In this document: piece by piece, positions 26,493-55,471 of the stretch
Position numbering within the stretch: the stretch's first letter is position 1
Layout: each line of letters starts with the position of its first letter
Position numbers and translations under genes: made by a program
The notes under the pieces: generated by a model
Told to the model about the DNA's origin: nothing
What the model saw: only the letters and a program-made list of their open reading frames with translations
The model's database searches: none
Assembly (NCBI GenBank): GCA_017474385.1
Contig: JAFVHU010000006.1
Location: 40,967-104,966, forward strand
Direction: 5' to 3'
Length of the DNA stretch: 64,000 bases
Source of the DNA: Afipia sp.
Lineage (GTDB): Bacteria > Pseudomonadota > Alphaproteobacteria > Rhizobiales > Xanthobacteraceae

Positions 26493-26567
26493 TGGCGCTC
26501 CCTAGCGGAATCGAACCGCTCTCTCCACCGTGAAAGGGTGGCGTCCTAACCGATAGACGAAGGGAGG
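26493..26567 (-). tRNA. tRNA-Glu (UUC), left copy, with a disrupted first base pair
   Basis: 75 bases with encoded CCA. Anticodon loop CTTTCAC gives anticodon TTC. The D-, anticodon- and T-arms are identical to the right copy, but the 5' base is C instead of G, so it cannot pair with C72 at the top of the acceptor stem. This may impair processing or charging. It marks the left end of the island. Confidence 0.85.
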
Positions 26568-26606
26568 GAAAAGGCTGCAAACGCTCTGCGCCGATTCTGC
26601 GTCGAC
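26493..26606. repeat. Left direct repeat of the island (attachment site)
   Basis: 114 bp matching 55358-55471 with two differences (26567 and near 26591). It covers the whole tRNA-Glu and 39 bp beyond the tRNA 5' end. The remaining bases to 26861 (about 255 bp) show no supported gene. Confidence 0.85.
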
Positions 26607-26861
26607 GATAGCATCGAGGCACAGCCGGAGATCTACATGGAGGCTGGCGATCACGAGACGCTGCTTCATCTGAGTCACGCGCAGTTTGCGCGCCCGACCG
26701 CCGGCGCAATGCATGGGCGCTTTAGCGCGCACGACTGAGGATTTGTCGGTCATATCTGCCACTGGGCAGACTGGTCGGACAATCCGCGGCGTCGCGGTCC
26801 GAAATGGGAAGATCATGCTGCTGCTTAACTGTTCATGCGGCGTGCGACGCCTCTTTATGTC

Positions 26862-27650
26862 TCATGCATCGAAATCGTCTTCGAAACGCAAGTGCTTAAC
26901 GCTGCGGCCACGGCGCCGCACAAGCCTCAGGGCCTCTATCCCGATCTTGATATGCCTTTCGACATAGTTCGCGGTCACCACCTGATCCGACGCTTCGGTC
27001 TTCACACCCTCGGGGATCATTGGCTGATCGGACACGAGAAGCAGTGCGCCGGTCGAAATGTGGTTGGCAAACCCAGCAGCAAAGATTGTAGCAGTCTCCA
27101 TGTCGATCGCCATACTTCGTGTACGACGCAACAAATCCCTGAAGCGGTCATCGTGTTCCCAGACACGACGATTGGTCGTGTACACAGTACCTGTCCAATA
27201 GTCGTGACCGAGATCGCGGATCATCGTTGACACCGCGCGTTGCAACTGGAACGCGGGCAGCGCGGGGACCTCCGGTGGCAGGTAATCATTCGAGGTACCT
27301 TCGCCCCGAATAGCCGCAATCGGTAGAATCAGGTCGCCAATATGATTCTTGCGTTTCAACCCGCCACATTTGCCAAGAAACAATACGGCTTTCGGCGCAA
27401 TGGCGCTTAACAGATCCATCACGGTCGCGGCATTCGGGCTTCCCATGCCGAAATTAATCAGAGTGATTCCATCGGCAGTCACGTTAGGCATCGGTCGATC
27501 TACGCCCCTTACCAAACCGCCATGCAGCGTGGCGAACCATTCGACGTAATTGTCGAAGTTGGTCAGAAGAATATACTCTCCGAATTCGGCGAGCGGCGTG
27601 CCGGTGTAACGCGGCAGCCAGTTTTCTACGATGTCCTTTTTCTCTTTCAT
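26862..27650 (-). CDS. amn: AMP nucleosidase, short form
   Basis: 262 residues from the ATG at 27650 (AAAGGGA just upstream). It belongs to the phosphorylase/nucleosidase fold: the N-terminal EYILLTNFDNYVEWFA is characteristic of the short AMP nucleosidase type; then LINFGMGSPNAATVMDLL, FLGKCGG, SMAIDMETATIFAAGF (the ribose-binding Met-Glu) and LLLVSDQPMIPEG with the catalytic Asp. It cleaves AMP to adenine and ribose 5-phosphate. It is the first gene inside the island and points toward the left boundary. Confidence 0.85.
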   Translation of the reverse strand: MKEKKDIVENWLPRYTGTPLAEFGEYILLTNFDNYVEWFATLHGGLVRGVDRPMPNVTADGITLINFGMGSPNAATVMDLLSAIAPKAVLFLGKCGGLKRKNHIGDLILPIAAIRGEGTSNDYLPPEVPALPAFQLQRAVSTMIRDLGHDYWTGTVYTTNRRVWEHDDRFRDLLRRTRSMAIDMETATIFAAGFANHISTGALLLVSDQPMIPEGVKTEASDQVVTANYVERHIKIGIEALRLVRRRGRSVKHLRFEDDFDA

Positions 27651-27696
27651 TCCCTTTGATCTCATCTGGAGGTGCGCAACACCGCAGCCTATCAGG

Positions 27697-27757
27697 CTAG
27701 TGGATGGAACCGTTCCCTGTCCAATGTGACACGCCCAGATTCGCAGGATTCCACTAG
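27697..27757. repeat. Short inverted repeat with ctag ends
   Basis: Eight-base ends ctagtgga and tccactag, 45 bp apart, in the 433-bp gap between the AMP nucleosidase and the CBS-domain gene. The ends resemble those of the paired hairpins at 529-692 and 62349-62511, but the interior does not pair well. It may be a degenerate relative. The rest of the gap shows no supported gene. Confidence 0.35.
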
Positions 27758-28083
27758 TCCGTTTGCAACCCGATTCCGGACGCGGAAGTCATCGCGCTGA
27801 CGCCTTACACAGGCTTTGGGGAAACCTGACATAGGCAGCTTCGGCTTCGCCGTCGGATGCGCGCGGCCTATTGCCTTTGCGATGTTGGGCGGGAATCCCG
27901 GCCGCGAAGTCGCTGTCACTTATTCAGGAGGGTGGCAGCGACAGCACTTGTCTGGTCCGATCGCGTAGGAATGATGCTTTCTTCTGACCTCGCACGCAAT
28001 CGGTTGTATAGTTGAGAAAAAGGGGGCCGTGCTGCATTGCATCAAGTGCACCTGAAACCGAGTGATAGTGATGGAGGCTCGCC

Positions 28084-28503
28084 ATGAAAGTCAAAGACAT
28101 GATGCACAAGGGTGTCGACTGGGTCAGCCCCAACACCCCTGTCACCGAGCTCGCGAAATTGATGCGAGGGCATGACATCGGCTGCATTCCGATTGGGGAG
28201 GACGACCGACTGATCGGGATCGTGACCGATCGCGACATCGTCTGCAAAGGGCTCGCGAGCAACACCTTCGATGCTGGCCGCGCGACGGCGCGCGATGTGA
28301 TGACCGAAGGCATCCATTGTTGCCGGGAGGACGATGATCTCGCAAGGGCGGTGCATCACATGGAGAAGCTGCAGGTCCGTAGGCTGCCGGTGATCAACAA
28401 GAGCAAGCGGATGGTCGGTATCATCAGTCTGGGTGACGTCAGCCATTCTGCGTCCGGTGATTTGCTATCCGAGTGCGTCAAGAGCGTTTCGGCCCATCAC
28501 TGA
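28084..28503 (+). CDS. Two-CBS-domain protein
   Basis: 139 residues, just two CBS domains: residues about 4-62 (MKVKDMMHKGVDWVSPNTPV, GCIPIGEDDRLIGIVTDRDIV) and about 73-130 (ARDVMTEGIHCCREDDDL, LQVRRLPVINKSKRMVGIISLGDVS). Such stand-alone pairs bind adenine nucleotides and act as energy sensors. GGAGG precedes the ATG. It lies before NAD-glutamate dehydrogenase; about 290 bp separate them with no other supported gene. Confidence 0.9.
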   Translation: MKVKDMMHKGVDWVSPNTPVTELAKLMRGHDIGCIPIGEDDRLIGIVTDRDIVCKGLASNTFDAGRATARDVMTEGIHCCREDDDLARAVHHMEKLQVRRLPVINKSKRMVGIISLGDVSHSASGDLLSECVKSVSAHH

Positions 28504-28792
28504 AACGCGATAGCCGCTCGATCAGACGTTGAGACGAAGCCGGGCAATACTTTTATCATGGCAGGGTCAGCTGCATCATCTGCTGCTGTCCCACTCTACG
28601 ACATGCACTCAATCACACATGAAGTTCTTCGATCGGTCACCTGCCACCAAGACAAGCCCTCTCGATGCGACGAGAATGGTTGCAACCTCCCAATGGAAGC
28701 ATATTTCTGGAATGGAATGACATTGTCATCAAGAGCCACGGAGGCTCCGACGCTGAGGGTTTTCGCAGACGCTATCAGTCTCGTTTAGGACA

Positions 28793-31700
28793 ATGGCGCT
28801 CCGAGAATTGCCCTCCAAAATCAAGCAGACAATAGCGTTTGCGGTCAGACGGGCGCGGCCACAAACGGAGGACGTTATGGCGTGGCGCGACGACAAGGCT
28901 CGGGCAACCCTGATCCGCGAGGCAGCGGGAAACATGCGGCCGGGCAAGACGCCCCGGACCTTTGTCGAGCTTCTGTTCGACCACACCAATATCGAGGACC
29001 TCGCCAACTACGATGCCGCCTCCTTGGCCTTCCTGGCAGAACAAGCCTGGGAACATGTGCAGCGACGCACCGCAGGCCGTGCAGATATCCGCGTGATCAA
29101 TCCGATGATGCCGGACGGGCGCGAGATTTCCGTGCTCGAAGTTCTCAACGACAACATGCCCTTCCTGTTCGATTCCACCATGGCGGAGCTCGCCGAACAG
29201 GGCATCGAAGTCACCCTGGTCGCCCACCCGATCATCGCCGTGGAGCGGGATGAGCAAGGCAAGCTCCTGCGTTTCTACGGCGAAACGTTGACAGCGGGGG
29301 CAAAGGGCGAGCGCGAAAGCCTGATCCATTTCCACATCACCCGTCTTGACGCCGATGCCGATCGCCAGAGGCTGATCGAGGGCCTTACCAAGACGCTCAA
29401 CGACGTGCGCGCCTGCGTTACCGACTGGCGGGCCATGCGCGCCCGTGTCGAACAGGCGATCAAGGCCTTCAACTCCAATCCGCCGCCGCTGCCAATTGAC
29501 GAGATCGCCGAAGCCACCCAATTCCTGCAATGGCTGTGCGCCGACAATTTCACCTTCCTTGGCCTGCGCGAGTATCGCTTCTCGTCCGACACCGATGCGT
29601 CGGGTGAAATCAGCACGGGCGAAGGCCTCGGCATCCTGCACGATCCCGATGTGAAGGTCCTGCGCCGCGGCACCGAAATGGTGGTGATGACGTCGGAAAT
29701 CCGCGAATTCATGCGCGAGCCGACCGTCCTCATCGTCATCAAGGCCAATGTAAGCAGCCGCGTTCATCGCCGCATCCGCATGGACTATGTCGGCATCAAG
29801 CTCTATACGCCCGACGGTCGGCTAGAGGGCGAATTGCGCCTCGTCGGCCTGTTCACCTCAGGTGCCTATACCCGCTCGGTGCGACAGATCCCCTACGTCC
29901 GACACAAGGTGGTGCAGGTGCTCGAGCGCGCCGGCTTCGACCCGGACAGCCACTCAGGCAAGGCTGTCCAGCATATCCTCGAAGAATATCCGCGCGACGA
30001 ACTCTTTCAGGTTGATGCCGAGACGCTCTACAATTTCGTCATGGAAATCCTGATGCTCTATGAGCGCCCCCGCGTGCGGGCGCTGGCACGGGCCGACAAA
30101 TTCGACCGCTTCGTCTCCATCCTCGTCTTCATTCCGCGCGAGAAATATGACACCGATGTGCGTACGCGCATCGCGGCTTTCCTGGCGCAGGTCTATAAAG
30201 GGACCTTGGCAACCTCCTACGTCTCCTTCCCCGAAGGGTCGCTTACCCGCGTCCACTACATCATCGGGCGCTATGAAGGCGAAACGCCTGTCATCGAGCC
30301 CGCCACGCTAGAAGCCGAGATCAGCACCATCGCCGCGACCTGGGGCGACAAGCTGAAAGCCGCGCTCACCACCTCTACCGACGGCATGCGGGCCCGCATG
30401 CTCGCCAACCGTTATGCCCAAGCCTTCACCGGCGGCTATACTGAAGCCTTCGGCACGTCACAGGCCATTGCCGATATCGCCACCATCGAAAAGCTCACCT
30501 CGGCTCGTCCTGTGGCAATTTCGGTCTACCGCAGCGAGGGCGAAGACGATCCAACGCGCTTCGGCCTCAAAGTCTTCTCGCATGGCGCGCCCCTGTCGCT
30601 GTCCTACCGGGTTCCGGTGATCGAAAATCACGGCCTATGCGTCGTCAACGAACGCACCTATCAGATCCTGCCCAGCGCCACGCCGGCACCCGCGCCGGTA
30701 TGGCTGCACGATATGACGATCAAAGCCAATGACAGCAAGCCGATCGTTATCGGCACGGAATTCAAACATCGTCTGGAAGCCTCGATAATGGCTGTACTGG
30801 GCGATCGCGCCGAATCGGACGGCTATAACGCCCTTATCCTGCGTACAACCCTGGGCTGGCGCGAGATTTCGACCGTCCGGGCCCTCTCCCGCTACCTGCG
30901 CCAAATCCGCGCGCCATTCAGTCAGGACTATATGTGGGAGACTTTGCGCAACAACACCGCGATCACCGCCAACATTGCCGCTCTGTTCCGAGCCCGCTTC
31001 GATCCGCACCTCGTTGCCACCGACGCCGAACGCTCGACACGCGAGACGACCCTCCTCGCCGAGATCGAGGAGCAGCTCAAATCCGTCGCCTCGCTCGACG
31101 AAGACCGCATCCTGCGCCGTTTCACCAATCTGGTGCAGGCAACCATCCGCACCAATCTGTGGCAGATCGGCCAGAACGGGCATCCGCGTCCGGTGATCTC
31201 CTTCAAATTCGAAGCGCGCAAGATCGAAGACCTGCCGGCGCCGCGGCCACTTTACGAAATTTTCGTCTATTCACCGCGTGTCGAGGGCATTCATCTGCGC
31301 TTCGGCAAGGTAGCGCGCGGCGGCCTGCGGTGGTCCGACCGGCCGCAGGATTTCCGCACCGAGATCCTCGGCCTGGTCAAGGCACAGCAGGTCAAGAACG
31401 CCGTCATCGTGCCGGTCGGCGCCAAAGGCGGATTCGTGCCCAAACGCCTGCCGCCGCCCTCCAATCGCGATGCCTGGATGGCGGAAGGCACCGAAACCTA
31501 CCGCATATTCATTCGCTCGCTGCTCGAACTCACCGATAATCTCGATGGCGACACGATCGTGCCGCCCGACAATACCGTGCGCCACGATCGCGATGACCCC
31601 TATCTCGTCGTCGCCGCCGACAAGGGCACCGCCACCTTTTCCGACATCGCCAACACGATCTCGACCGAGAAGGGCCATTGGCTTGGCGATGCTTTCGCCT

Positions 31701-33697
31701 CCGGCGGCAGCCGGGGCTATGACCACAAGAAGATGGGCATCACCGCGCGCGGTGCGTGGGAAGCGGTCAAACGCCATTTCCGCGAACTCGGCGCCGATAT
31801 CCAGACTATGCCCTTCACCGCTGCCGGCGTGGGCGACATGTCCGGTGACGTCTTCGGCAATGGCATGCTGCTCTCGCCGGCGACCAAGCTCGTTGCGGCT
31901 TTCGATCACCGCGACATCTTCATCGATCCATCGCCCGATCCGGCCATCAGCCACGCCGAGCGCCTGCGCATATTCAATCTGCCGCGGTCGAACTGGCAGG
32001 ACTACAACAAGTCGCTGATCTCGCAGGGCGGCGGCGTGTTCTCGCGTTCGCTCAAGGCAATCCCGCTCGCGCCGGAAGTGCGGGCCCTGCTTGATCTCGA
32101 CAAGCCGCAAGCCACGCCCTTCGAGGTGATCACGGCGATCCTCAAGGCACGCGTTGACCTGCTCTGGTTTGGCGGCATCGGCACCTATATCCGCGCTTTG
32201 GGGGAAAGCGACGATCAGGTTGGCGATCGCGCCAATGATCCGATCCGTGTCACGGGCGCTGATATCCGCGCCCGGGTGATTGGCGAAGGCGCCAATCTCG
32301 GCGTGACCCAGCGCGGCCGCGTCGAAGCGGCGCAGAAAGGCATCAAGCTCAACACCGACGCAATCGACAATTCGGCCGGGGTCAACACCTCCGACGTCGA
32401 GGTCAATATCAAGATCGCGCTCGCGCGCCCCGAACGCGATGGGCGCCTTAGCCAGAACGACCGCAACAGCCTGCTTGCCGCGATGACCGACGAGGTCGGC
32501 ATGCTGGTGCTGCGGAACAATTATCTGCAGACGCTGGCGCTTTCGCTGACCGAACGCAAGGGCGTGGCCGAGACCGGCTTCCTCACCCGCCTGATGCAAT
32601 CACTCGAGCAGCGCGGCCTCCTTGACCGCGGCGTGGAGTTCCTGCCGGACGATGTGGCAATCACCGAGCGCACGAGGCGCGGCCAACCCTTTACCCGGCC
32701 GGAACTTGCAGTGTTACTCGCTTACGCCAAGCTGACGCTTTACGATGATCTGCTCGTCACCAGTGTGCCGGACGATCCTTATCTCGCCCGCGAACTGTCC
32801 CAGTACTTCCCGCCCGAGGTTCAGGATAAATTCCCCGATTCGGTGCAATTCCATCGCCTTCGGCGCGAGATCATCTCGACCAATCTCGCCAATGCCGTGA
32901 TCAATCGCGGCGGCCCGGCTTGCATCGTGCGCCTGATCGACGAGACGGGTGCCGATGTGCCCACCATCGCCATGGCCTTCGTGGCGGTGGATGAATCCTA
33001 CGGCCTCAAGCGGTTGAACGACGCAATTGACGGGCTCGACACCAAGATCGAGGGTCAATTGCAGCTCGGTCTCTACGCCTCGGTTCAGGATCTCCTGCTC
33101 TCCCGCGTGGCCTGGTCTGTACGCAATATCGATTTCAGCGCCGGTCTGGAAGCGGTGATCTCGCGCTTCGGCTCCGGCATCGGTGAGATCGCAGCCGGGC
33201 TCGACAATACCCTGCCCCAGGACATGCAGGCCGGGCGCAGCAGGCGTCGGCAGGACCTGACCGATGGCGGCGTCCCGGCAGAACTTGCCGGCGAACTCGC
33301 CGATCTCGACACCTTGGTCTCCGCACCCGATATCGTGACGGTCGCGAGGCGCACCAACCGCGCTATCGGCGATACGGCCACGACCTTCTTCGCCGCCGAA
33401 GCCAATTTCCGTCTCGACCGCATCATCGCCGCTGCACGCGGCGTGCCGGCGAACGATTTTTTCGAACGTCTCGCCATCGATCGCGCCGTTGATCAGATCG
33501 CAGGCGCCGAAAGAAGACTAGTTGCCGATATGCTGGCAACCGGCCAGTCCGGCCAGCAGGCCGCCGAGACATGGCTCGCGGCCCATCCTGAAGCGACGCG
33601 CATCCGCCGTTCGGTCGAGGAGATCGCCGCCGGTGGCCTGACGCTCGCCAAGCTGACGGTGGCGGCGAACTTGCTGGGTGATTTGGTAAAGGGTTGA
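28793..33697 (+). CDS. gdhB: NAD-specific glutamate dehydrogenase, large (180-kDa) type
   Basis: 1634 residues, the length of the large alphaproteobacterial NAD-GDH. The N-terminal half carries ACT-like regulatory domains. The catalytic core is near residues 835-1210: RGGLRWSDRPQDFRTEILGL, VPVGAKGGFV (substrate Lys), DKGTATFSDIAN, FTAAGVGDMSGDVFGNGML, and GEGANLGVTQRGR. It deaminates glutamate to 2-oxoglutarate with NAD, linking amino-acid use to the TCA cycle. The exact start is uncertain; an ATG at 28877 is possible. It is an unusually large, central-metabolism cargo for an island. Confidence 0.92.
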   Translation: MALRELPSKIKQTIAFAVRRARPQTEDVMAWRDDKARATLIREAAGNMRPGKTPRTFVELLFDHTNIEDLANYDAASLAFLAEQAWEHVQRRTAGRADIRVINPMMPDGREISVLEVLNDNMPFLFDSTMAELAEQGIEVTLVAHPIIAVERDEQGKLLRFYGETLTAGAKGERESLIHFHITRLDADADRQRLIEGLTKTLNDVRACVTDWRAMRARVEQAIKAFNSNPPPLPIDEIAEATQFLQWLCADNFTFLGLREYRFSSDTDASGEISTGEGLGILHDPDVKVLRRGTEMVVMTSEIREFMREPTVLIVIKANVSSRVHRRIRMDYVGIKLYTPDGRLEGELRLVGLFTSGAYTRSVRQIPYVRHKVVQVLERAGFDPDSHSGKAVQHILEEYPRDELFQVDAETLYNFVMEILMLYERPRVRALARADKFDRFVSILVFIPREKYDTDVRTRIAAFLAQVYKGTLATSYVSFPEGSLTRVHYIIGRYEGETPVIEPATLEAEISTIAATWGDKLKAALTTSTDGMRARMLANRYAQAFTGGYTEAFGTSQAIADIATIEKLTSARPVAISVYRSEGEDDPTRFGLKVFSHGAPLSLSYRVPVIENHGLCVVNERTYQILPSATPAPAPVWLHDMTIKANDSKPIVIGTEFKHRLEASIMAVLGDRAESDGYNALILRTTLGWREISTVRALSRYLRQIRAPFSQDYMWETLRNNTAITANIAALFRARFDPHLVATDAERSTRETTLLAEIEEQLKSVASLDEDRILRRFTNLVQATIRTNLWQIGQNGHPRPVISFKFEARKIEDLPAPRPLYEIFVYSPRVEGIHLRFGKVARGGLRWSDRPQDFRTEILGLVKAQQVKNAVIVPVGAKGGFVPKRLPPPSNRDAWMAEGTETYRIFIRSLLELTDNLDGDTIVPPDNTVRHDRDDPYLVVAADKGTATFSDIANTISTEKGHWLGDAFASGGSRGYDHKKMGITARGAWEAVKRHFRELGADIQTMPFTAAGVGDMSGDVFGNGMLLSPATKLVAAFDHRDIFIDPSPDPAISHAERLRIFNLPRSNWQDYNKSLISQGGGVFSRSLKAIPLAPEVRALLDLDKPQATPFEVITAILKARVDLLWFGGIGTYIRALGESDDQVGDRANDPIRVTGADIRARVIGEGANLGVTQRGRVEAAQKGIKLNTDAIDNSAGVNTSDVEVNIKIALARPERDGRLSQNDRNSLLAAMTDEVGMLVLRNNYLQTLALSLTERKGVAETGFLTRLMQSLEQRGLLDRGVEFLPDDVAITERTRRGQPFTRPELAVLLAYAKLTLYDDLLVTSVPDDPYLARELSQYFPPEVQDKFPDSVQFHRLRREIISTNLANAVINRGGPACIVRLIDETGADVPTIAMAFVAVDESYGLKRLNDAIDGLDTKIEGQLQLGLYASVQDLLLSRVAWSVRNIDFSAGLEAVISRFGSGIGEIAAGLDNTLPQDMQAGRSRRRQDLTDGGVPAELAGELADLDTLVSAPDIVTVARRTNRAIGDTATTFFAAEANFRLDRIIAAARGVPANDFFERLAIDRAVDQIAGAERRLVADMLATGQSGQQAAETWLAAHPEATRIRRSVEEIAAGGLTLAKLTVAANLLGDLVKG

Positions 33698-33814
33698 GAG
33701 GGCACGCTCACGACAAGCGATTTGGAGTGTGCGCAGATGGACCGGTGGCAGGCAAGATATCCAGAATCTCTTGCGCCGCAGCGCCATTGGGATAACGGCA
33801 GACCACTCGTTCTA

Positions 33815-34063
33815 TCACGGTGAGCGCGTCATCGGGGATCTGGTCTGCCAAGCGTCTTTCTGTGGCCCATCGTCACTCACATCAGTCTTGAACCTTCGGT
33901 CACGACCAATCGTCGCGCTACGCGAAATACCAAGCCGTTGCCCTATCTCAGCGAAGGACGCACCAGCCTCTTTTGCCTTCAATAACCTTCTGTCGAGATT
34001 CGCATTCCAGATATCTGGCATTTCCGAATCTCCAGTGGAGATTCCCCTCCTTCTGATTTGCAA
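33815..34063 (-). CDS. Small helix-turn-helix protein, GcrA-like
   Basis: About 82 residues. The central part WNANLDRRLLKAKEAGASFA followed by EIGQRLGISRSATIGRDRRF is a helix-turn-helix of the GcrA/Hin type, with the ISRSA recognition helix. The shorter start at residue 15 (MPDIWNANL) is also possible. It is the only regulator-like gene seen inside the island. Target unknown. Confidence 0.6.
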   Translation of the reverse strand: MQIRRRGISTGDSEMPDIWNANLDRRLLKAKEAGASFAEIGQRLGISRSATIGRDRRFKTDVSDDGPQKDAWQTRSPMTRSP

Positions 34064-34090
34064 ACTTTCGGCAACTAAATGTGGTGGTCA

Positions 34091-34499: not shown

Positions 34500-34712
34500 T
34501 CAACTGCTTTCCAGTGTAAAACCCACTTTGAGCGTTACCTGGTAGTGATCAACGATTCCATTCTCGATGTGGCCTCTCGTCTGAACGACTTCAAACCACC
34601 TCATATCTCGGATAGTCGTCTTGGCCCGTGCGATGGCATTCTGAATTGCGTCCTCGATACTTTGATCAGATGATCCCGCGAGTTCCAAAATCTTATAGAC
34701 ATGATCCTTCAT
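34500..34712 (-). CDS. Dodecin family flavin-binding protein
   Basis: 70 residues, the classic dodecin length. [20 protein letters not shown], the [20 protein letters not shown] helix-strand with the flavin-stacking Trp, and the end [19 protein letters not shown] precedes the ATG at 34712. Dodecins form 12-mers that store riboflavin or FMN. The 308 bp to the TonB receptor stop (34713-35020) are A-rich and show no supported gene. Confidence 0.9.
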
Positions 34713-35020
34713 TTGGCGCTCCTTCCGGCTCAATGTCAGCCGAGACCCCGGCGTTGCCGAGCTTTGCCCTCATCTCCTAAATACTTCTTACGTTGAAGCG
34801 AGAACGAAGAAATGCATTAACAGGCTAAGCACCGCCCAAAGAAATTTAGCGAGAAAAGAAAAAAGGCAGACTTAAAAAAATGGCAGACTTGAAGACTAAG
34901 GAACTCCGCAATCCCGGCGCTGCATTGCAAAAATCTAGGAACTCCCGCCCCTATCAAAGATAAATCATGTCGCGGTTTGGTCATCTGGCTCCGGACCGCC
35001 CCAACCACCTCCGCCCGGAT

Positions 35021-39040: not shown

Positions 39041-39079
39041 AACAAGAATCAATAAGTCAAACGTAAGGAGGATGATCCC

Positions 39080-39643: not shown

Positions 39644-39741
39644 TCCGGGACGGCCGGTGACGTGACAGGCAACACCGGCGCCGGAACGCAGCCTGATCCG
39701 TTCCAATCCAGCCGCTGTCGATCGGCCGGAGGGCTGGAATA

Positions 39742-42449: not shown

Positions 42450-42468
42450 CAAGATGGAGGTTTCGCAC

Positions 42469-45103: not shown

Positions 45104-45714
45104 GATGCTGGCTCGTCCTGTATGCTCTCCTTTCAGTTATTGCCTCGGCCGATCTCTCCTTCGCAGTTGATCCTCGCTACCCGGACTGGCCATGCACCCA
45201 AGCCAAGGTACCGGAGGTCTCGCTTGCCGCCGTCTGGGCCGGGCCAGCGCTAGATGATGTCGTTGGCAAATGGAAAGACGACGGCAAGATAAGCACGTTG
45301 GTCGAGCGGCTCGCCGCTCGGCGCACGCCTCTCGATGAAGCGCAGAAACTCGTCGCTGAATTTCTCTCCGAGTCGGCAGCCGAAAAGACAAAAATGGGCA
45401 AGCTGCTGTTCGCCGGCTTGTACGATGCACTCAACGCGCAGCGTTCATCGGTATTGAACGGGCTTGAGCGGATCACCCGCAAGCAACGAGACGCCGCGGA
45501 GAAGATCCGCGCCGATACGCTCGTGCTTCACGAACTACAGGACGCGCCCGCGCCCGATCAAACCAGGATCGATCAGCTTGCCAACCAGTTGACCTGGGAG
45601 ACGCGCATCTTCGAGGACCGGAACAAGGTCATTCGCTTCGCCTGCGAAGTGCCGACCGCAATTGATCAGCGCTTGTTCGCGCTCGGACGCACCGTTCAGC
45701 AGGAGATGGAGTAG
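45100..45714 (+). CDS. Exported protein of unknown function, last gene of the ABC operon
   Basis: 204 residues with a signal peptide (MRCWLVLYALLSVIASADLSFA). The mature N-terminus DPRYPDWPCTQAKVPEVSLAAVW is conserved in relatives from methanol loci, from memory. The rest is helical and charged (AARRTPLDEAQKLVAEFL, RKQRDAAEKIRADTLVLHEL), with coiled-coil potential. The start is coupled to the permease by an ATGA overlap, so it is part of the same machine. Convergent with xoxJ. Confidence 0.8.
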   Translation: MRCWLVLYALLSVIASADLSFAVDPRYPDWPCTQAKVPEVSLAAVWAGPALDDVVGKWKDDGKISTLVERLAARRTPLDEAQKLVAEFLSESAAEKTKMGKLLFAGLYDALNAQRSSVLNGLERITRKQRDAAEKIRADTLVLHELQDAPAPDQTRIDQLANQLTWETRIFEDRNKVIRFACEVPTAIDQRLFALGRTVQQEME

Positions 45715-45908: not shown

Positions 45909-46799
45909 TCATCGCTGCTTCGTCATCGTCTCAGCGGTGATCGGCTGGTCGTTTTCATCGAGCAGCGGCACGCCGAAATCGAGCAGGAGCTGGTTGATCG
46001 CGGGCTGGTTCTCCTGGATGAAGCGGTTGAGCAACCGCTTCCAGTTCTGGTCGGCCGCGCGCACGCCCATGCCGATGCGATAGACGAGGCGCGGCCCGGC
46101 CGTCTCCCTGATCAGCGGCACGACCCGCAGCGGCGGGTTAGCCTTCTTTGCGTAATAGCCGGCCATCGGCCCCCACAGGATGCCGGCGTCGATCTCCCCC
46201 AATGTCACATCCTTGATCATCGCCTCGGCCGAGGAATCGATGCGCGTGTCGATCATAAGCGGATAGGATTTTGCGCTTCCCATAAGGCCATTGACCGCCA
46301 TGTTGGTCCCGGGCGGCGTGCCTGCCACGATACCGATGCGTTTGCCTTTGAGACGCTCATCGCCGAGCGTCGCGACGTCGTTGAGGCTACTGCCGCGCTT
46401 GGCGACGAGCGCGTAGGCCGTGCGGTAGTAAGGGTTGGTGCCTTGGGCGAGGTCGTCCCCTTGCGGGAAGCCCACAATCACGTCGCAGCGGTGAGAGCCA
46501 AGCGTCATCCGCACGAAGCCGGTCGCCTGCGGAAAGAACGCGTAGGCAAGCTTCTTGCCCAACTTCTGTGCAAGCAGTTCAGCGAGCTTGTTCTCGAAGC
46601 CCTCGCCCTTGTCGTTGGAAAAAGGAAGATTGTGCGGGTCCGCGCAAACTCTCAGCACCTTCGGATCGACGAGTTCAATCGAAAGATCCGTGCCTTCAGG
46701 ACGCGCCTGCGCCAGAGCCAGCCCGTGATCGAGCTGCACAATCAAGACCGCGCAAAACATCGAGAACGCCCACGCTCCGCGCGATGCGGCTATCGCCAT
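45909..46799 (-). CDS. xoxJ: XoxJ/MxaJ-like periplasmic binding protein
   Basis: 296 residues from the ATG at 46799 (AAGGAG upstream; signal peptide AIAASRGAWAFSMFCAVLIV). Type II binding-protein fold: LRVCADPHNLPFSNDKGEGFE, DVIVGFPQGDDLAQGTNPYYR, IGIVAGTPPGTNMAV, and GEIDAGILWGPMAGYYAKKA. XoxJ is needed for XoxF function, possibly in activation or partner docking. Third gene of the leftward xoxF-G-J set. Confidence 0.92.
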   Translation of the reverse strand: MAIAASRGAWAFSMFCAVLIVQLDHGLALAQARPEGTDLSIELVDPKVLRVCADPHNLPFSNDKGEGFENKLAELLAQKLGKKLAYAFFPQATGFVRMTLGSHRCDVIVGFPQGDDLAQGTNPYYRTAYALVAKRGSSLNDVATLGDERLKGKRIGIVAGTPPGTNMAVNGLMGSAKSYPLMIDTRIDSSAEAMIKDVTLGEIDAGILWGPMAGYYAKKANPPLRVVPLIRETAGPRLVYRIGMGVRAADQNWKRLLNRFIQENQPAINQLLLDFGVPLLDENDQPITAETMTKQR

Positions 46800-46857
46800 C
46801 GCGGTCTCCTTGTCGATTATCGCCAGCGCGCTGCGCCATTCGCCCTTGCTCAGCCGG

Positions 46858-47373
46858 TCAGTTCTTGCCGATACAGGAATCCTCCCATTGCCTAGCGGCT
46901 TCCGGCTTGGCTTCGTGCTTGGAAGGCCGCACGCGACCAACCGCTTCGTTCGCGCGCGCCCGCAGATAGACGAAGAGATCGTCCATGTAGCAGGCGACGT
47001 TCGGATTTTCGCCGAGAGCCGGCATCACGCTTTCCCGCGACGACGTGATGTTCTTACGTCCAACGGCGACCACGCTGAGAAACTCTCCATAGTCCATGGT
47101 CTTGAGCGTGTCCTTGAGCCCCGGCGCATAAGTCGATCCTTCGCCGTCGGGGCCATGGCAGACGTGGCACTCCGAATGATACCGGCGATAGCCGGAATAC
47201 GTGTACCAATCGACCGTTCCGTCGGGCGTAACCTTGTAGGTCGGGTTGCCGTCCTTATCCAGGTATCGGCCGTTCTCGTTCTTGACGGCGGCAGGATCGC
47301 CGCTTCCGTCCGCGAACGCCACGCCTCCCAGCGCGACAGCCAGTACCGCTACGGCAATGATACCGATGTACAC
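46858..47373 (-). CDS. xoxG: XoxG cytochrome c, electron acceptor of XoxF
   Basis: About 171 residues from a GTG at 47373 (GAGG upstream). The longer ORF from 47466 would run over a strong hairpin and is unlikely. One CXXCH-type heme site, SECHVCHGPDGEGSTYAPGL, is visible with the distal Met in ESVMPALGENPNV. An N-terminal hydrophobic leader (VYIGIIAVAVLAVALGG) precedes it. It takes electrons from the PQQ of XoxF to the respiratory chain. Confidence 0.9.
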   Translation of the reverse strand: MYIGIIAVAVLAVALGGVAFADGSGDPAAVKNENGRYLDKDGNPTYKVTPDGTVDWYTYSGYRRYHSECHVCHGPDGEGSTYAPGLKDTLKTMDYGEFLSVVAVGRKNITSSRESVMPALGENPNVACYMDDLFVYLRARANEAVGRVRPSKHEAKPEAARQWEDSCIGKN

Positions 47374-47419
47374 GAGCGCGCCTCGAAATGTGAATGTCGG
47401 ATGCAGGAAATAAAATGAC

Positions 47420-47448
47420 CCGGCGCGTGAAAATGTTCCACGCGCCGG
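47420..47448 (-). promoter_or_regulatory. Hairpin between xoxF and xoxG
   Basis: Perfect 10-bp GC-rich stem, ccggcgcgtg (47420-47429) with cacgcgccgg (47439-47448), in the 105 bp after the xoxF stop, followed on the minus strand by a modest T-rich stretch. It looks like a partial terminator or 3'-end stabiliser, giving more xoxF than xoxG mRNA. Confidence 0.7.
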
Positions 47449-47478
47449 AAGCGTTTCGTTGTGCATCTGCGTGCAGCT

Positions 47479-49281
47479 TTACTGCGGCAGTGCAAACACC
47501 GTCAGCGTTCCGCCGAGAGCAGTGTAGTTGCGCAGGCCGGCGTAGCCACCCACGGCACCAAGGCCCGCCGTCGGATCGGTCAACCCGGCCGCAAGACCGA
47601 TGCCCGCCCATCCGCCGACACCTGATAGAATGGCAATGTACTGCTTACCGCCCTGCTCGTAGGTCGTCACGTTGCCGATGATGCCGGACGGGGTTTTGAA
47701 CTTGTAAAGTTCCTTGCCCGTCTTGGCGTCGACAGCCTTGAAATAGCCTTCGAGCGTTCCGTAGAACACCACTCCACCTGCGGTCGCAAGCGCCCCGGAC
47801 CATACCGAGAACTGCTCGTTAACCGACCATACGATCTTGCCGGTCTTGGCATCCCAAGCAATGAAATTGCCCATATGCTTGTCGCCCTCTGGCGGATACA
47901 TGGAGAGCGTCGCCCCGACATAGGGCTGGCCCGCCGTGTAGCGCACGCGGAACGGCTCATAGTCCATGCAGACGTGGTTGGTCGGCACGTAGAACAGGCC
48001 AGTATCGGGCGAGAAGGCAGCTGGCTGCTGGTCCTTTGTGCCGAGCGCGGCCGGGCAGATGCCTTTCGCGTTGACGTCCTCACCGTGCTTGTCGGTCGAA
48101 TACGCATCGACGACTTTCGGACGGCCGTAAGTGGGTGACGACTTGTTCATGTCGACGCCCGTCGTCCAGTTGACCTTCGGATCGTACTTCTCGGCCACCA
48201 GCAATTCGCCGTTGGTACGGTCAAGGGTATATCCCAGCCCGTTGCGGTCGAAGTGCACGAGTATTTTCCGATTCTGGCCGCCGATATTCTGATCGGCCAG
48301 GATCATCTCGTTCACGCCGTCATAGTCCCACTCGTCGTGCGGGGTCATCTGGTAGACCCAGCGTGTCATGCCGGTGTCGACATCACGCGCCCAGATCGCC
48401 ATCGACCAGCGATTGTCTCCCGGACGCTGCTTCGGGTTCCAGGTCGAGGGGTTGCCCGATCCGTAGTACATCAGGTTCAGTTCAGGGTCGTAGGAATACC
48501 AACCCCACGTCGCGCCACCGCCAATCTTCCACTGATCACCCTGCCACGTATTGGTGCCGGAGCTTGGACCCACCGGCTTGCCGAGATGAGTGGTCTTCGC
48601 CGGGTCGATCAGCGTGTCGCTGTCGGGCCCCATCGAATAGCCGCGCCAAACCTGCTTGCCATCCTTGATGTTATAGGCCGTGACGGAGCCGCGAACGCCA
48701 AACTCTCCACCCGAAATACCAATGATGACCTTGTCCTTGAAGATCATCGGCGAAGACGTACCGGTCTCGCCTTTTCCGGGGTCGCCGTTCTTGACCGACC
48801 AGACAACGGCGCCGGTCTTCGCGTCGAGGGCAACCAGCGTGGTATCAGCCTGGTGCAGGAATATCTTGCCGTCGGCGTAAGCGGGGCCGCGGTTGACGGT
48901 GTCGCAGCACATCACAGGAATGACGTTCGGATCCTGCTTCGGCTCATACTTCCAGACGATCTTCTGTTCGTCCTTGAGATTGAGCGCGTAGACGATATTC
49001 GGGAACGGCGTGTGGATGTACATCATGTCGCCGATGATGAGCGGTCCGCCTTCATGGCCACGCAGCACACCGGTCGAGAACGTCCACGCAACCTGCAATT
49101 TGCCGACATTGTCGGACGTGATCTGCTTGAGTTGCGAGAAACGATGATTGGCATAGTTGCCAGTAGGCATGACCCAATCTTTTGGGTTCTGCTGCATTTT
49201 CAGCAACTCGTCGTTAGCGTTCGCGGCGCTCGCAAATGCCGCTAAAGCGCCAAAACACGTCGTGAGTAGAACCTTGCGCAT
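47479..49281 (-). CDS. xoxF: Lanthanide-dependent methanol dehydrogenase XoxF
   Basis: 600 residues from the ATG at 49281 (GGGAGGA upstream; signal peptide [18 protein letters not shown]). An eight-bladed PQQ dehydrogenase. Active-site parts: adjacent cysteines [10 protein letters not shown] (C125-C126), Glu193 in GGEFGVRG, Asn277 in GNPSTWNP, and [11 protein letters not shown] with catalytic Asp319 and the second Asp321 two residues later. That extra Asp, Ala in calcium MxaF, is the mark of lanthanide enzymes. No MxaI-type small subunit is present. It oxidises methanol to formaldehyde in the periplasm. 343 bp upstream (49282-49624) are non-coding leader. Confidence 0.97.
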
Positions 49282-49624
49282 AGCGAATCCTCCCACGTTT
49301 CATTGGGTTCATTTCGTCTCCAACAATGCGTGGGCCCGAATGTACCATGCGCCCAGCGCCAACCATTGCAACGGGATGAATTTCCGACAGTGTAGCTTCG
49401 GCGAGTTACGCTCGCCTCATCGTCCGAAGACATCGGCGATCCCGGTGAACCGAAGTCCAATGGAAGCCGGAAAACTGGCAAATGTTATGCCCGTCATCTG
49501 GAGCGTGCAATAGAAATAGTAATGCTTCGCATCTGCGTGCGTTTTCGGCCTGTCATACTGGCGCAATTAGGTTCCACATTTACCAGTTCGATGCGCGGGT
49601 AACGTCATCGTCCTGACTCGTCTC

Positions 49625-50130: not shown

Positions 50131-51120
50131 GTGAGTGACATCGTCGCATGCGTCATGCGTTGCTTGCTTGGTGTAGCCATGGCGGGGATCTGGCTGGTCG
50201 CGCCCTCGTCGGCGGCCACCGTCCGCCTCGCAGTGCAGAAGGCCGGGACGGTGGCGTGGGAACTCGCCGTCATCCGCGCTCATGGCCTCGACAAGGAGGC
50301 CGGTCTTACCATCGAGGTCGCGGAACTTGCGAGCCCTGAAGCCGGCAAGGTTGCGCTGCGCGGCGGCTCCGTCGATGTCATCGTTTCCGATTGGCTGTGG
50401 GTCTCGCGCGAGCGGGGGCTAGGCGCAAAGCTCAAGATCTATCCCTATTCGAGCACGGTCGGTGCTGTGATGGTAACGGCCTCCTCGCCCATTCGAACGT
50501 TCGCGGATCTCAAAGGCCGCAAGCTTGCCGTCGCAGGCGGTCCGCTCGACAAGAACTGGCTGCTACTCCAGGCCGCTATGAAGCAGGACGGTATCGATCT
50601 CAAATCCCAGGCGAACATCGTTTATGGCGCGCCGCCTTTGCTCGCCGCCAAGACCGTGAGCGGCGAGATGGACGCGACCCTCAACTACTGGAACTTCTGC
50701 GCTGCTCTCGAGGCGAAAGGTTTCCGGCGCGTCGGCGGGATCGAGGACGTCCTGCCGAAGCTCGGCGCGAAAGGTCGCACCGCCATGCTCGGCTACGTCT
50801 TCGACGAGCGGTGGGCGAACAAGAACCACGAGACGATCGCGCGCTTCGTCGCCATGACGAGAAGCGCGAAGGAGATCCTCGCAGCATCGGACACGGAATG
50901 GGAGAGGATTGCGCCACTCACCGGCGCCGCCGATGCGGCAACACTCCGCGTCTATCGGAATCGCTATCGCGAAGGAATCCCGCGCCGCCCGATCGCCGAC
51001 GAAGAGGCAGACGCGCGCGTTCTCTATCGGGTCCTCGCGAAGATCGGTGGCGTGGAGTTGGTCGGGCCGACGCGGGAACTCGATCCCGGAACATTTTATC
51101 GTGGAATTCCCGGAAGCTGA
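50131..51120 (+). CDS. ABC transporter substrate-binding protein, SsuA/TauA-like
   Basis: 329 residues from a GTG (GGAGG upstream). Signal peptide MRCLLGVAMAGIWLVAPSSAA. NMT1/SsuA-like fold: VRLAVQKAGTVAWELAVIRA, VDVIVSDWLWVSRERG, DLKGRKLAVAGGPLDKNWLL, and DATLNYWNFCAALEAKGF. Family members bind sulfonates, nitrate, thiamine precursors or similar. The solute here is unknown. Divergent from the small exported gene before xoxF (149-bp gap). Confidence 0.87.
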   Translation: MSDIVACVMRCLLGVAMAGIWLVAPSSAATVRLAVQKAGTVAWELAVIRAHGLDKEAGLTIEVAELASPEAGKVALRGGSVDVIVSDWLWVSRERGLGAKLKIYPYSSTVGAVMVTASSPIRTFADLKGRKLAVAGGPLDKNWLLLQAAMKQDGIDLKSQANIVYGAPPLLAAKTVSGEMDATLNYWNFCAALEAKGFRRVGGIEDVLPKLGAKGRTAMLGYVFDERWANKNHETIARFVAMTRSAKEILAASDTEWERIAPLTGAADAATLRVYRNRYREGIPRRPIADEEADARVLYRVLAKIGGVELVGPTRELDPGTFYRGIPGS

Positions 51121-51861
51121 ATGATGCTTAGATTGCTGTCGCTCGCTATCTTCCTGTTCACGTGGTGGGCCGCGTCGCTCATGGCGGGTGAACAGATGTT
51201 GCCCGCGCCCGCGACCGTCCTCAGCACCATCGTGGTAGAAGCCCGCTCTGGCGCGCTGTTTTTTAACCTCGGTGTCACGCTTGCGCGCGTTGCTCTCTCC
51301 TTCGCGCTCGCGATGACGCTTGGCGCAGCCATCGGCTACCTCATGGGCCGCGTGCGGACCGCGGATCGCTTGGGCGACCCGTGGCTGATCCTGCTCCTCA
51401 ACCTGCCGGCGCTGGTCGTGATCGTGCTCGCCTACATCTGGGCAGGGCTTACCGAGGTTGCCGCGATCGCAGCGATTGCCATCAACAAGCTGCCCAACGC
51501 GGTAGTCACGGTGCGCGAAGGCACGCGCGCGCTCGACGCCCGTCTCGACGAGATGGCCTCCGTGTTCGCGATCCCACGCTGGCAGGCTTTCCGTCATGTG
51601 GTGCTGCCGCAACTCGCACCCTATATTGCGGCGGCCGCGCGCTCTGGCCTGTCGCTCGTGTGGAAGATCGTGCTCGTCGCCGAACTCTTGGGGAGACCGA
51701 ATGGCGTCGGCTTCGAGATCGGCACTGCATTCCAGTTGTTCGACATTACACACATCCTCGCCTATGCGTTGGCCTTCGCAGCCGTTGTGCTGACGATCGA
51801 AACATTCCTGGTGCAGCCCTTTGAACGACATGCGTCCCGCTGGCGGCAGCGCGCTGCTTGA
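51121..51861 (+). CDS. ABC transporter permease, SsuC/TauC-like
   Basis: 246 residues, six hydrophobic helices, starting at the base after the previous stop. The ATPase-contact loop is GTRALDARLDEMASVFAIPRWQAFRHVVLP, followed by LAPYIAAAARSGLSLVWKIVL, typical of the nitrate/sulfonate/taurine permeases. Overlaps the ATPase gene by 32 bases. Confidence 0.9.
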   Translation: MMLRLLSLAIFLFTWWAASLMAGEQMLPAPATVLSTIVVEARSGALFFNLGVTLARVALSFALAMTLGAAIGYLMGRVRTADRLGDPWLILLLNLPALVVIVLAYIWAGLTEVAAIAAIAINKLPNAVVTVREGTRALDARLDEMASVFAIPRWQAFRHVVLPQLAPYIAAAARSGLSLVWKIVLVAELLGRPNGVGFEIGTAFQLFDITHILAYALAFAAVVLTIETFLVQPFERHASRWRQRAA

Positions 51862-52585
51862 TGTCGAGATCAAGCAGAAGACCTTCGTAACTGCCGCCGG
51901 CGAGCGGCTGGAGGTGCTGCGCGACATCGGCTTCGTGCTCGGCCGTGGCGAGGTGGCCGTGTTCGTCGGTCCGTCTGGCTGCGGTAAGACCACGATGCTC
52001 CGGATTATCGCCGGCCTCGACCGCGATTATCGCGGCCGCGTTGTGCGCCCGCCCGGCGCTCGCGTCGGAATGGTGTTCGAGGAGCCGCGACTTCTTCCCT
52101 GGCGTTCGGTCGAAGACAATGTACGGCTTGCTGCGCCGAATGCCGACGGGGCAAGGCTGGCGGCTCTGTTCGCCATTCTGGAATTGACCCAACACCGTAC
52201 GCACTATCCCGGCGAATTGTCGCTGGGCCTCGCCCGACGCGTGGCGCTCGCACGGGCATTCGCCATCGACCCTGATGTCCTCATCCTCGACGAGCCGCTG
52301 GTGTCGCTGGACGACGTCCTTGCCGCTCACCTGCGCGACGAACTCATGGCGCTGGTCGATAGCAGGCCGGTGACGACACTCCTGGTCACTCACGATGTCA
52401 ACGACGCGGTGCGGCTCGGCGATCGCATCTTCCTCATGTCGTCGCGACCGGCGCATGTTGAAGCAGAGGTGCCAATCGCCACGCCGCGCATGGCGCGTGG
52501 CGAGAACGAGATCGCGGCGATCAAGGCTATGATCGCGCGACGGACCAGTGGCAATCGCACTGCCACCACGCGAGATGCTTCATAG
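51830..52585 (+). CDS. ABC transporter ATPase, SsuB/TauB-like
   Basis: About 251 residues from the ATG at 51830 (a TTG at 51821 is possible). Walker A GPSGCGKTT, Walker B VLILDEPLVSLDD, switch LLVTHDV, FEEPRLLPWRSVEDNV Q-loop. The signature is LSLGLARR instead of LSGGQ, which is non-canonical. It drives the importer at 50131-51861. Overlaps the permease. Confidence 0.88.
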   Translation: MRPAGGSALLDVEIKQKTFVTAAGERLEVLRDIGFVLGRGEVAVFVGPSGCGKTTMLRIIAGLDRDYRGRVVRPPGARVGMVFEEPRLLPWRSVEDNVRLAAPNADGARLAALFAILELTQHRTHYPGELSLGLARRVALARAFAIDPDVLILDEPLVSLDDVLAAHLRDELMALVDSRPVTTLLVTHDVNDAVRLGDRIFLMSSRPAHVEAEVPIATPRMARGENEIAAIKAMIARRTSGNRTATTRDAS

Positions 52586-53426: not shown

Positions 53427-53463
53427 CAGCTCAGCGTTCGGTTGCCCAGAGCGAGGATGCGCA

Positions 53464-53930: not shown

Positions 53931-54167
53931 TCACGCCACGCGCGCTGGTCCGCGCGCATCGGCCTTGTCCCTTGGGTGTGGATACTCGCAACGCCACCGC
54001 ACGGCGTTCCATTTCGGATGCTCGCCGATCCACTGGGCGATGTAGGGTGGCGCCGCCATCACGCATTGCTGCTGCGAGCCGCTCCACGCGAACTGGAGGT
54101 GAGCCTCTTCGCAAGTCGTCGGCGAGGCGATGGCGCAGACCGTCACAATCAGGTCGATCAGATTCAT
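53931..54167 (-). CDS. Small Cys-containing hypothetical protein
   Basis: 78 residues from the ATG at 54167 (an upstream ATG at 54194 adds nine residues). MNLIDLIVTVCAIASPTTCE is a hydrophobic N-terminus that might be a short signal; then HLQFAWSGSQQQCVMAAPPY, IAQWIGEHPKWNAVRWRCEY with several Cys and Trp. It is convergent with the 115-residue gene. Similar short proteins are widespread in alphaproteobacteria, from memory; role unknown. Confidence 0.65.
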   Translation of the reverse strand: MNLIDLIVTVCAIASPTTCEEAHLQFAWSGSQQQCVMAAPPYIAQWIGEHPKWNAVRWRCEYPHPRDKADARGPARVA

Positions 54168-54321
54168 GGCAGCAGTCCTCGTTTGGGATAGCAATTATAA
54201 TACAAAAAAATACGACCAAAATCAGCGCGGGTTTCAGATAGCGTGAAAATGTCCATTTATGCGATTCCCTTGAGTGCGGAGCAAAACCATAAATCCTCTG
54301 GCCCGGTTCAACGCTGAGATA

Positions 54322-55098
54322 CGGGCACGGCGCATTTCGCTCAGGACCGCCAGGTAGCAGACGCGGTCCGCACGATAGGCGTGACGGAAGTAACGTACCA
54401 TCGGTGGCGTAACGAGTACGGTGGCCTGAAGGGCGATCAGGTCAAGCGGCTGAAGGAATTGGAGATCGAGAACGCTCGGCTCCGGCGAGCGGTGTCGGAT
54501 CTGACGCTGGACAAGCTGATCCTGGCGGAGGCTGCAAAGGGAAACTTCTAAGCCCCTCCCGACGCCGTGCGTGCGTCGATCATGTAACAGCCGAGCTTGG
54601 CGTCTCCGAGAGACGGGCGTGCCGGGCACTCGGTCAACATCGGTCGACGCAGCGCAAGATCCCAACGACACCCGATGACGAGGTAGCATTGACTGCCGAC
54701 ATCATCGAGCTTGCTCGCCAATATGGCCGCTACGGATATCGCCGGATCGCGGCGTCGCTTCGCAGGGCTGGCTGGATGGTGAACAAGAAGCGGGTGGAAC
54801 GGATCTGGCGGTGCGAGGGGCTGAAGGTCCCTGCCAAACAACCTAAACGCGGGCGTCTCTGGCTCAACGACGGCTCATGCATCCGTCTGCGGCCGGAGCG
54901 GCCAAACCATGTCTGGTCCTATGACTTCGTCGCCGACCGCACCCACGATGGCAAGGCGTTCCGGATGTTGTGCATCATCGACGAGTTCAGCCATGAGAGA
55001 GCCTGGCCATCCGTATCGCACGGAAGCTCAAGGCGACCGATGTCATCGAGGCACTTTGCGCGCTGTTCGTCTCGCGGGGCAGGCAAGCCGACCTACCT
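54322..55098 (+). pseudogene. Degenerate IS3-family transposase (OrfA and OrfB remnants)
   Basis: OrfA tail: QVADAVRTIGVTEVTYHRWR and the leucine-zipper LKELEIENARLRRAVSDL, ending at 54551. OrfB: IIELARQYGRYGYRRIAASL, RVERIWRCEGLKVPAKQPKR, NHVWSYDFVADRTHDGKAFR, the DDE-type rve core with its first Asp. A frameshift follows FSHE (55001 region), another after CALFVSR, and the C-terminal half of the catalytic core is missing where the sequence joins the integrase remnant. The OrfA start is also lost. Not functional. Confidence 0.85.
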
Positions 55099-55278
55099 CA
55101 TTGTTCGGCGCATGGCGTCCGAAAAGCGACTGCAACAGCACTCGCCGAAGCAGGGGCAACGCCGCACCAGATCGGGGCGATCACAGGTCATACATCTTTG
55201 AAGGAGATTGAGCGTTACACCAACGCCGCTCAGCGTAGCGGGCTAGCTACAGCGGGCATGGCAAAGCTCAAACAATGA
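55099..55278 (+). pseudogene. C-terminal remnant of a tyrosine recombinase (integrase)
   Basis: Sixty codons beginning HCSAHGVRKATATALAEAG and ending at a stop at 55276-55278. The catalytic box is intact: HxxR in HGVRK, His in GAITGHTS, and Tyr in IERYTN. The N-terminal part is missing and the 5' edge abuts the IS3 fragment. It lies 79 bp from the right tRNA-Glu repeat, where an island integrase is expected. It was probably the enzyme that inserted the island. Confidence 0.85.
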
Positions 55279-55357
55279 ACATCTACAGTCCCACTCAGAG
55301 GGCCGGTGGGTATATCCCGGAAATAACCGCAAAAAAATCAATGGGATTATAGAACAA

Positions 55358-55432
55358 TGGCGCTCCCTAGCGGAATCGAACCGCTCTCTCCACCGTGAAA
55401 GGGTGGCGTCCTAACCGATAGACGAAGGGAGC
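55358..55432 (-). tRNA. tRNA-Glu (UUC), right copy, intact
   Basis: 75 bases with encoded CCA. Acceptor stem GCTCCCT pairs with AGGGAGC; anticodon loop CTTTCAC gives TTC; T-arm GCGGTTCGATTCCGC. It is the intact partner of the left copy and probably the original attachment gene: its 3' end faces the island. Confidence 0.95.
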
Positions 55433-55471
55433 GAAAAGGCTGCAAACGCTCTGCGCAGATTCTGCGTCGAC
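55358..55471. repeat. Right direct repeat of the island (attachment site)
   Basis: 114 bp, the partner of 26493-26606. Includes tRNA-Glu and 39 bp past its 5' end. The 242 bp from here to the cyclase gene show no supported feature. Confidence 0.85.

What the first reader, a model, noticed from the sequence alone, without database searches (positions are those of the whole stretch)
26493..55471. Methanol oxidation island at tRNA-Glu
Two 114-bp direct repeats containing whole tRNA-Glu genes, 28,865 bp apart, enclose a XoxF methanol system, a formaldehyde pathway, two ABC systems and an integrase remnant. Lanthanide methanol oxidation delivered as one tRNA-bounded cassette is notable because it would give a complete C1 energy pathway by one transfer. 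The integrase is decayed, so the event is not recent.
Basis: partly seen in the sequence, partly recalled or inferred. Interest (0 to 1): 0.75.

Follow-up and report, generated by a model that had tools for sequence, protein, structure and literature searches.

The report
Methanol-oxidation genomic island at tRNA-Glu
A block of about 28.8 kilobases with a lanthanide-type methanol-oxidation gene cluster was inserted beside a tRNA-Glu gene in this bacterium, while related species have a single tRNA gene and no such block there; it is a well-documented genomic island of a known kind.

Summary
Observation confirmed: two tRNA-Glu(UUC) genes in 114-bp direct repeats (98%), 28,865 bp apart, enclose xoxF-xoxG-xoxJ, a glutathione-formaldehyde set, two ABC systems and an integrase remnant. 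XoxF of this type is in 1 of 28 congeners (G384), at another locus. The remnant is the C-terminal end of a tyrosine integrase, 79 bp from the right tRNA; its closest congener homologue has the same layout at a tRNA-Glu, with a 17-bp repeat of the tRNA 3' end. IS3-type remnants precede it. Corrections: the block is composite (its glutamate-dehydrogenase part is 94% identical in DNA to a copy elsewhere in G012, whereas shared flanks are 84-85%), and the host has its own glutathione-formaldehyde dehydrogenase, PqqE and formate dehydrogenase, so the dehydrogenase and its partners arrived, not a complete pathway. The left tRNA has a G1-to-C change, and the repeat spans the whole tRNA plus 39 bp, which a plain integrase event does not explain. 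New member of a known kind.

The parts
26493..26606 (-). left repeat: tRNA-Glu(UUC) with C at base 1, plus 39 bp upstream
26862..27665 (-). AMP nucleosidase
   Evidence: NCBIfam NF005500 over cut-off
28084..28503 (+). CBS-domain protein
   Evidence: weak matches to CBS-domain families, none over its cut-off
28673..34045 (+). NAD-glutamate dehydrogenase module, 94.4% identical in DNA to a G012 locus elsewhere in that genome
   Evidence: gene 28793-33697 named by eye
34503..34769 (-). dodecin
   Evidence: PF07311
35021..37534 (-). TonB-dependent receptor; also beside the xox block in G384 and some Bradyrhizobium
37931..40587 (+). adhC, gfa, fghA: glutathione-dependent formaldehyde oxidation
41244..45714 (+). 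PQQ-linked ABC set: binding protein, beta-propeller, ATPase, permease, and a 204-aa protein
   Evidence: TIGR03863, 03866, 03864, 03861 over cut-off; 204-aa protein without Pfam match
45909..46940 (-). xoxJ
   Evidence: TIGR03871 over cut-off
46858..47466 (-). xoxG, cytochrome c
   Evidence: TIGR03874 over cut-off
47479..49296 (-). xoxF, lanthanide-type methanol dehydrogenase
50131..52585 (+). NMT1-type ABC set
   Evidence: PF09084, PF00528, PF00005
52548..53808 (+). pentapeptide-repeat protein and 130-aa protein, right end of the conserved xox block
54318..55198 (+). IS3-type transposase remnants (orfA-like and orfB-like frames)
   Evidence: PF01527, PF13276
54997..55278 (+). frame ending in the C-terminal remnant of a tyrosine integrase (homology from about 55087)
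   Evidence: PF00589; homologues; layout
55358..55471 (-). right repeat: normal tRNA-Glu(UUC) with its native upstream region

Best explanation
A genomic island of about 28.8 kb inserted downstream of tRNA-Glu(UUC) in one lineage of its genus. Shown: insertion relative to 10 congeners, native upstream region at the right tRNA, integrase end beside it. Inferred: a tRNA-Glu-directed tyrosine integrase recombined the element into the tRNA 3' end; an IS3-type element and a deletion later removed most of the integrase and fixed the island. The cargo is composite: a standard xox block from a source in or near the genus, and a glutamate-dehydrogenase module shared with G012. Function (inferred from the families): XoxF with PQQ and a lanthanide oxidises methanol to formaldehyde in the periplasm, XoxG takes the electrons, the glutathione route takes formaldehyde to formate, and the host supplies PQQ and formate dehydrogenase. 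The whole-tRNA repeat suggests that the element had taken up the full tRNA locus of this species or a close one before its last insertion; that step is not shown.
For: Empty site with one tRNA-Glu in 10 of 14 comparable congeners. XoxF of this type in 1 of 28 congeners, elsewhere in that genome. Integrase end at the expected place, DNA alignable with the G013 integrase-tRNA-Glu junction (71% over 345 positions; 79 vs 82 bp between stop codon and tRNA), where a 17-bp tRNA-3'-end copy lies about 6.9 kb away. 37 of 45 homologue loci have a tRNA within about 1.5 kb, 8 of them tRNA-Glu. Same tRNA-Glu has an intact integrase beside it in G008.
Against: The repeat covers the whole tRNA and 39 bp upstream, more than the usual 3'-end block. 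The integrase group uses many tRNAs (Phe, Ser, Arg and others), so tRNA-Glu specificity rests on the two closest congener homologues and six of the other 43 loci. Only the last 60 or so residues of the integrase remain, so it cannot be shown to have moved this cargo. Own genome is an 84% complete assembly in 162 contigs. GC and codon differences are slight.
Confidence: 0.82

Rival explanations
1. The block came in by homologous recombination between tRNA-Glu copies, for instance from a conspecific strain or a circular element carrying tRNA-Glu with its upstream region; the integrase end is left from an older element at this hotspot.
For: 114-bp repeat with upstream region that differs by 1 of 39 bases between the copies but by 7 to 23 (ungapped) from seven congeners; other genes and an integrase occupy the site in other species.
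Against: The integrase end lies inside the repeats and directly at the right tRNA, as expected for the island's own integrase.
Confidence: 0.12
2. The block is ancestral and was lost in the other species by recombination between the two tRNA-Glu genes, which also leaves one tRNA.
For: Such a deletion would give the same empty site; XoxF is widespread in the family (104 of 296 sampled genomes at E up to 1e-200).
Against: It needs loss in each of 10 species while G384, the one other congener with xoxF, has it at another locus; the upstream copy is closer to this species' own than to any congener's.
Confidence: 0.05
3. Assembly artefact: foreign DNA joined at the tRNA-Glu repeat.
For: Fragmented assembly, and joins at a repeat of 114 bp are possible.
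Against: Two wrong joins would be needed; the copies differ at two bases and were kept apart; the right junction aligns with a real integrase junction; GDH and XoxF are closest to congeners G012 and G384.
Confidence: 0.05

Closest known systems
tRNA-integrated genomic islands with tyrosine integrases (general kind)
   Same: insertion at the 3' side of a tRNA gene, integrase beside the tRNA, direct repeats, empty site in relatives
   Different: the repeat contains the whole tRNA plus 39 bp; the integrase is reduced to its end
Alphaproteobacterial XoxF5 clusters (e.g. Paracoccus aminophilus, PMC4543880, passages seen; Bradyrhizobium and family loci)
   Same: xoxF-xoxG-xoxJ clustered with glutathione-formaldehyde genes and the PQQ-linked ABC set, in the order also seen in G481 for the genes present there
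   Different: here inside a tRNA-bounded insertion; lacks genes that G384 has within the block (two ORFs between orf174 and xoxF, and a likely two-component pair)
Methylotrophy islands (PMC4543880, PMC12542740; dcm and mau islands of Methylobacterium, PMC2680597; passages seen)
   Same: C1 genes in islands or varying between strains; the mau island is listed with tRNA marks
   Different: the passages seen describe no xoxF block between two tRNA genes with integrase remnant and empty site

Membership tests
tRNA-integrated genomic island | tRNA gene at the boundary and direct repeats | tested here: met
tRNA-integrated genomic island | empty site in relatives | tested here: met
   10 of 14 comparable congeners
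tRNA-integrated genomic island | integrase gene | tested here: met
   remnant only: C-terminal end; no other piece found in the window
tRNA-integrated genomic island | repeat limited to the tRNA 3' end | tested here: not met
   repeat is the whole tRNA plus 39 bp; usual but not an indispensable feature, so the filing stands
tRNA-integrated genomic island | deviating composition | tested here: inconclusive
   slight differences
tRNA-integrated genomic island | excision or transfer | not testable with these tools
   needs live cells; integrase is broken
XoxF5 methanol-oxidation cluster | XoxF close to solved lanthanide enzymes, Asp in the WDxDG stretch | tested here: met
   6oc5 1035 bits, 6dam 930 bits, Asp aligned; role of that Asp recalled
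XoxF5 methanol-oxidation cluster | xoxG and xoxJ adjacent | tested here: met
   TIGR03874, TIGR03871 over cut-off
XoxF5 methanol-oxidation cluster | PQQ available | tested here: met
   PqqE over cut-off on own contig C66; other pqq genes not searched
XoxF5 methanol-oxidation cluster | methanol oxidation activity | not testable with these tools
   needs culture or expression

The most novel reading that the evidence does not exclude
The element carries a complete tRNA-Glu gene with its own upstream region as attachment site, so that insertion duplicates the whole tRNA instead of rebuilding its 3' end, and the displaced copy (C1:C72) is free to decay or change; as such it would be a tRNA-carrying metabolic island that moves the xox block between species of this genus.
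Probability: 0.2. Interest if true: 0.5.

Novelty: new member of a known kind. Interest (0 to 1): 0.38.

Why it matters
It is a clear natural case of a lanthanide methanol dehydrogenase entering a genus that mostly lacks it, by one insertion, with empty sites in ten species to compare. It shows what such a transfer brought (dehydrogenase, cytochrome, binding protein, transport genes) and what the host already supplied (PqqE, a glutathione-formaldehyde dehydrogenase, formate dehydrogenase).

Tried and rejected
Pre-existing tandem tRNA pair with the island between: it predicts a further copy of the tRNA 3' end beside the left repeat. The best match to the 17-bp end is 11 of 17 in 26607-27100 and 13 of 17 in the whole island, so none.

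xox clusters on tRNA islands as a general habit: an integrase profile from 36 of 45 homologue ORFs (those of 300-480 residues with the expected motif) found an integrase in 0 of 80 named XoxF loci (flanks up to 10 kb, some much shorter) and 0 of 5 family xox loci (G384, G324, G308, G314, G481), at E up to 1e-4. 3 of the 80 have a tRNA, none tRNA-Glu.

Naming the genus: plasmid search gave only partial matches, best rows 72-81%. Genus not identified; a guess of Afipia is recalled only. Rows dropped: 18 Bradyrhizobium loci thinned from the tree (101 to 83 rows); 14 of 29 family loci L177-L205 left out.

In print: searches (open-licence papers only, listings seen) showed no paper describing a xoxF island at a tRNA with integrase remnant.
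Full report
Observation. Two tRNA-Glu(UUC) genes lie on the minus strand (26493-26567, 55358-55432) in a 114-bp, 98% direct repeat, 28,865 bp apart. One edge of the repeat is the tRNA 3' end; the other lies 39 bp upstream of the tRNA. The copies differ at tRNA base 1 (C left, G right), which removes the first acceptor-stem pair in the predicted fold (-27.5 vs -31.9 kcal/mol), and at one upstream base. A DNA search of the own genome found one further tRNA-Glu, CUC.

Contents, left to right: AMP nucleosidase, CBS protein, NAD-glutamate dehydrogenase, an HTH-like frame, dodecin, TonB receptor, adhC, gfa, fghA, a 170-aa protein, PQQ-linked ABC set, a 204-aa protein, xoxJ, xoxG, xoxF, a 174-aa protein, NMT1-type ABC set, pentapeptide protein, a 130-aa protein, IS3-type remnants, integrase end. 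XoxF matches 6oc5 and 6dam best, both named lanthanide-dependent methanol dehydrogenase.

Empty site. 29 genomes of the genus are held, the own one included. The right-flank cyclase is in 14 of the 28 congeners at E up to 1e-100. In 10 of the 14 the paa side of the window (up to about 24.2-24.6 kb, except the shorter match in G013) and the cyclase lie on either side of one tRNA-Glu: G001, G012, G013, G014, G017, G018, G019, G024 and G459, G493. In G013 the tRNA is inverted. In G001, G014 and G493 the left homology ends about 64 bp from the tRNA. The other four: G003 and G384 have one tRNA-Glu next to the cyclase, with genes from further left in the window (up to 3.9 and 6.1 kb) beyond it and no paa block (tRNA inverted in G384); G008 and G010 share only the right side, and in G008 only 2.8 kb precede the tRNA on its contig. 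None shows the island. The 14 congeners without the cyclase gene could not be compared at this site.

XoxF in the genus. 24 congeners were searched: their matches are at most 43% identical. The other four (G384, G459, G493, G527) were drawn, where G384 alone of the congeners matches at E up to 1e-200. In G384 xoxF is at 4.38 Mb and the tRNA-Glu site at 0.46 Mb. In the family sample 104 of 296 genomes match, so the cluster is common outside the genus.

Integrase. Frame 54997-55275 ends in the C-terminal part of a tyrosine recombinase (PF00589, 2.2e-8). A profile made from relatives finds no other piece in the window. The closest congener homologue (G013, 68% over 62 residues, in a 198-aa ORF that is itself too short) stands 82 bp before a tRNA-Glu(CUC), against 79 bp here (stop codon to tRNA), and the DNA aligns through integrase end, spacer and tRNA. 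There a 17-bp copy of the tRNA 3' end lies about 6.9 kb away. The second closest (G018, broken) is also near tRNA-Glu(CUC); the third (G007) is at tRNA-Phe. Of the 45 homologue loci returned besides the own one, 37 have a tRNA within about 1.5 kb, 8 of them tRNA-Glu and more of them tRNA-Phe. So the group uses tRNAs in general, and the two nearest congener copies use tRNA-Glu.

Hotspot. In G008 an intact-looking integrase (arm, central and catalytic domains) stands about 100 bp from the 3' end of the same tRNA-Glu(UUC), reading away from it. Elsewhere the 3' side holds different genes: an aldehyde dehydrogenase in G012, G017 and G459, a long repeat protein in G013, a LysE-like protein in G018 and G024 (named by eye), an acyltransferase (25216-26310, PF01757) outside the left tRNA of the window.

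Origin of the cargo. The segment 28673-34045 is 94.4% identical in DNA to a G012 locus at 0.37 Mb, far from that genome's tRNA-Glu site at 3.74 Mb, while the flanks shared by the two genomes are 84-85%. Of the 24 congeners searched only G012 (94% protein) and G009 (47%) match. The block from TonB receptor to the 130-aa protein is in G384 too, in the same order for the genes found, with two ORFs and a likely two-component pair (by eye) that the window lacks. ORFs on either side of it in G384 had no match among 80 named loci, four family loci and the window; many of these loci have short flanks. In the XoxF tree the window, G384 and G324 form one clade with support 99. G011 has adhC-gfa-fghA (91, 81, 82%) without the other genes in 36 kb.

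Completeness. A second adhC (75%) is on own contig C48, and 27 of 28 congeners have an adhC match at E up to 1e-100. PqqE is over its cut-off in 15 of 29 genomes, the own one included. A formate dehydrogenase alpha subunit is over its cut-off in the own genome. RuBisCO large subunit was not found in this 84% complete genome, and other assimilation routes were not searched, so growth on methanol as carbon source is open. What the island added is XoxF-XoxG-XoxJ and associated transport genes, with a second formaldehyde set.

The odd point. The left copy is a complete tRNA with 39 bp upstream that differ by 1 base from the right copy and by 7 to 23 (ungapped, so inflated by indels) from seven congeners. 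A plain integrase event leaves only the tRNA 3' end, as in G013. The likeliest reason is that the element had taken up the tRNA locus of this species or a close one before its last insertion, by imprecise excision or homologous recombination; this is inference. A pre-existing tandem pair is not supported.

Composition. Island-side genes differ slightly from flank genes (GC 0.598 vs 0.617, p 0.017; GC3 p 0.18; codon score p 0.018), which fits a source inside the family.

Literature (passages seen). PMC4543880: xoxF clustered with glutathione-formaldehyde genes in several Alphaproteobacteria, methanol growth lost in a xoxF mutant, methylotrophy islands. PMC12542740: a 45-kb methylotrophy island with xoxF5. 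PMC2680597: dcm and mau islands. Searches listed no paper on a xoxF island at a tRNA with integrase remnant.

Verdict. A real tRNA-Glu island bearing a standard xox block, now without a working integrase gene; well supported and ordinary in kind, with one unexplained detail, the whole-tRNA repeat.

Noticed in passing
window 26493-26567: Left tRNA-Glu has C at base 1, giving a C1:C72 mismatch in an otherwise identical tRNA.
   Followed up: partly
L058 15401-15594 (G013) and L240+L237 near 34634-34708 (G384): The tRNA-Glu with its upstream stretch is inverted relative to the cyclase in two congeners.
   Followed up: no
L064 1456-2724 (G008): Intact-looking tyrosine integrase beside the same tRNA-Glu(UUC), reading away from it.
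   Followed up: partly
L250 14757-17404 (G011): adhC-gfa-fghA of the xox type without xoxF in 36 kb.
   Followed up: partly
L054 7251-12624 (G012): NAD-glutamate dehydrogenase module 94.4% identical in DNA to the window, at an unrelated locus.
   Followed up: partly
window 21846-21886 and 63780-63820: 41-bp interspersed repeat, 95% alike, with matches in congener loci.
   Followed up: no
window 25216-26310: Acyltransferase just outside the left tRNA; not matched by DNA in the congener sites, some of which have an aldehyde dehydrogenase there.
   Followed up: no
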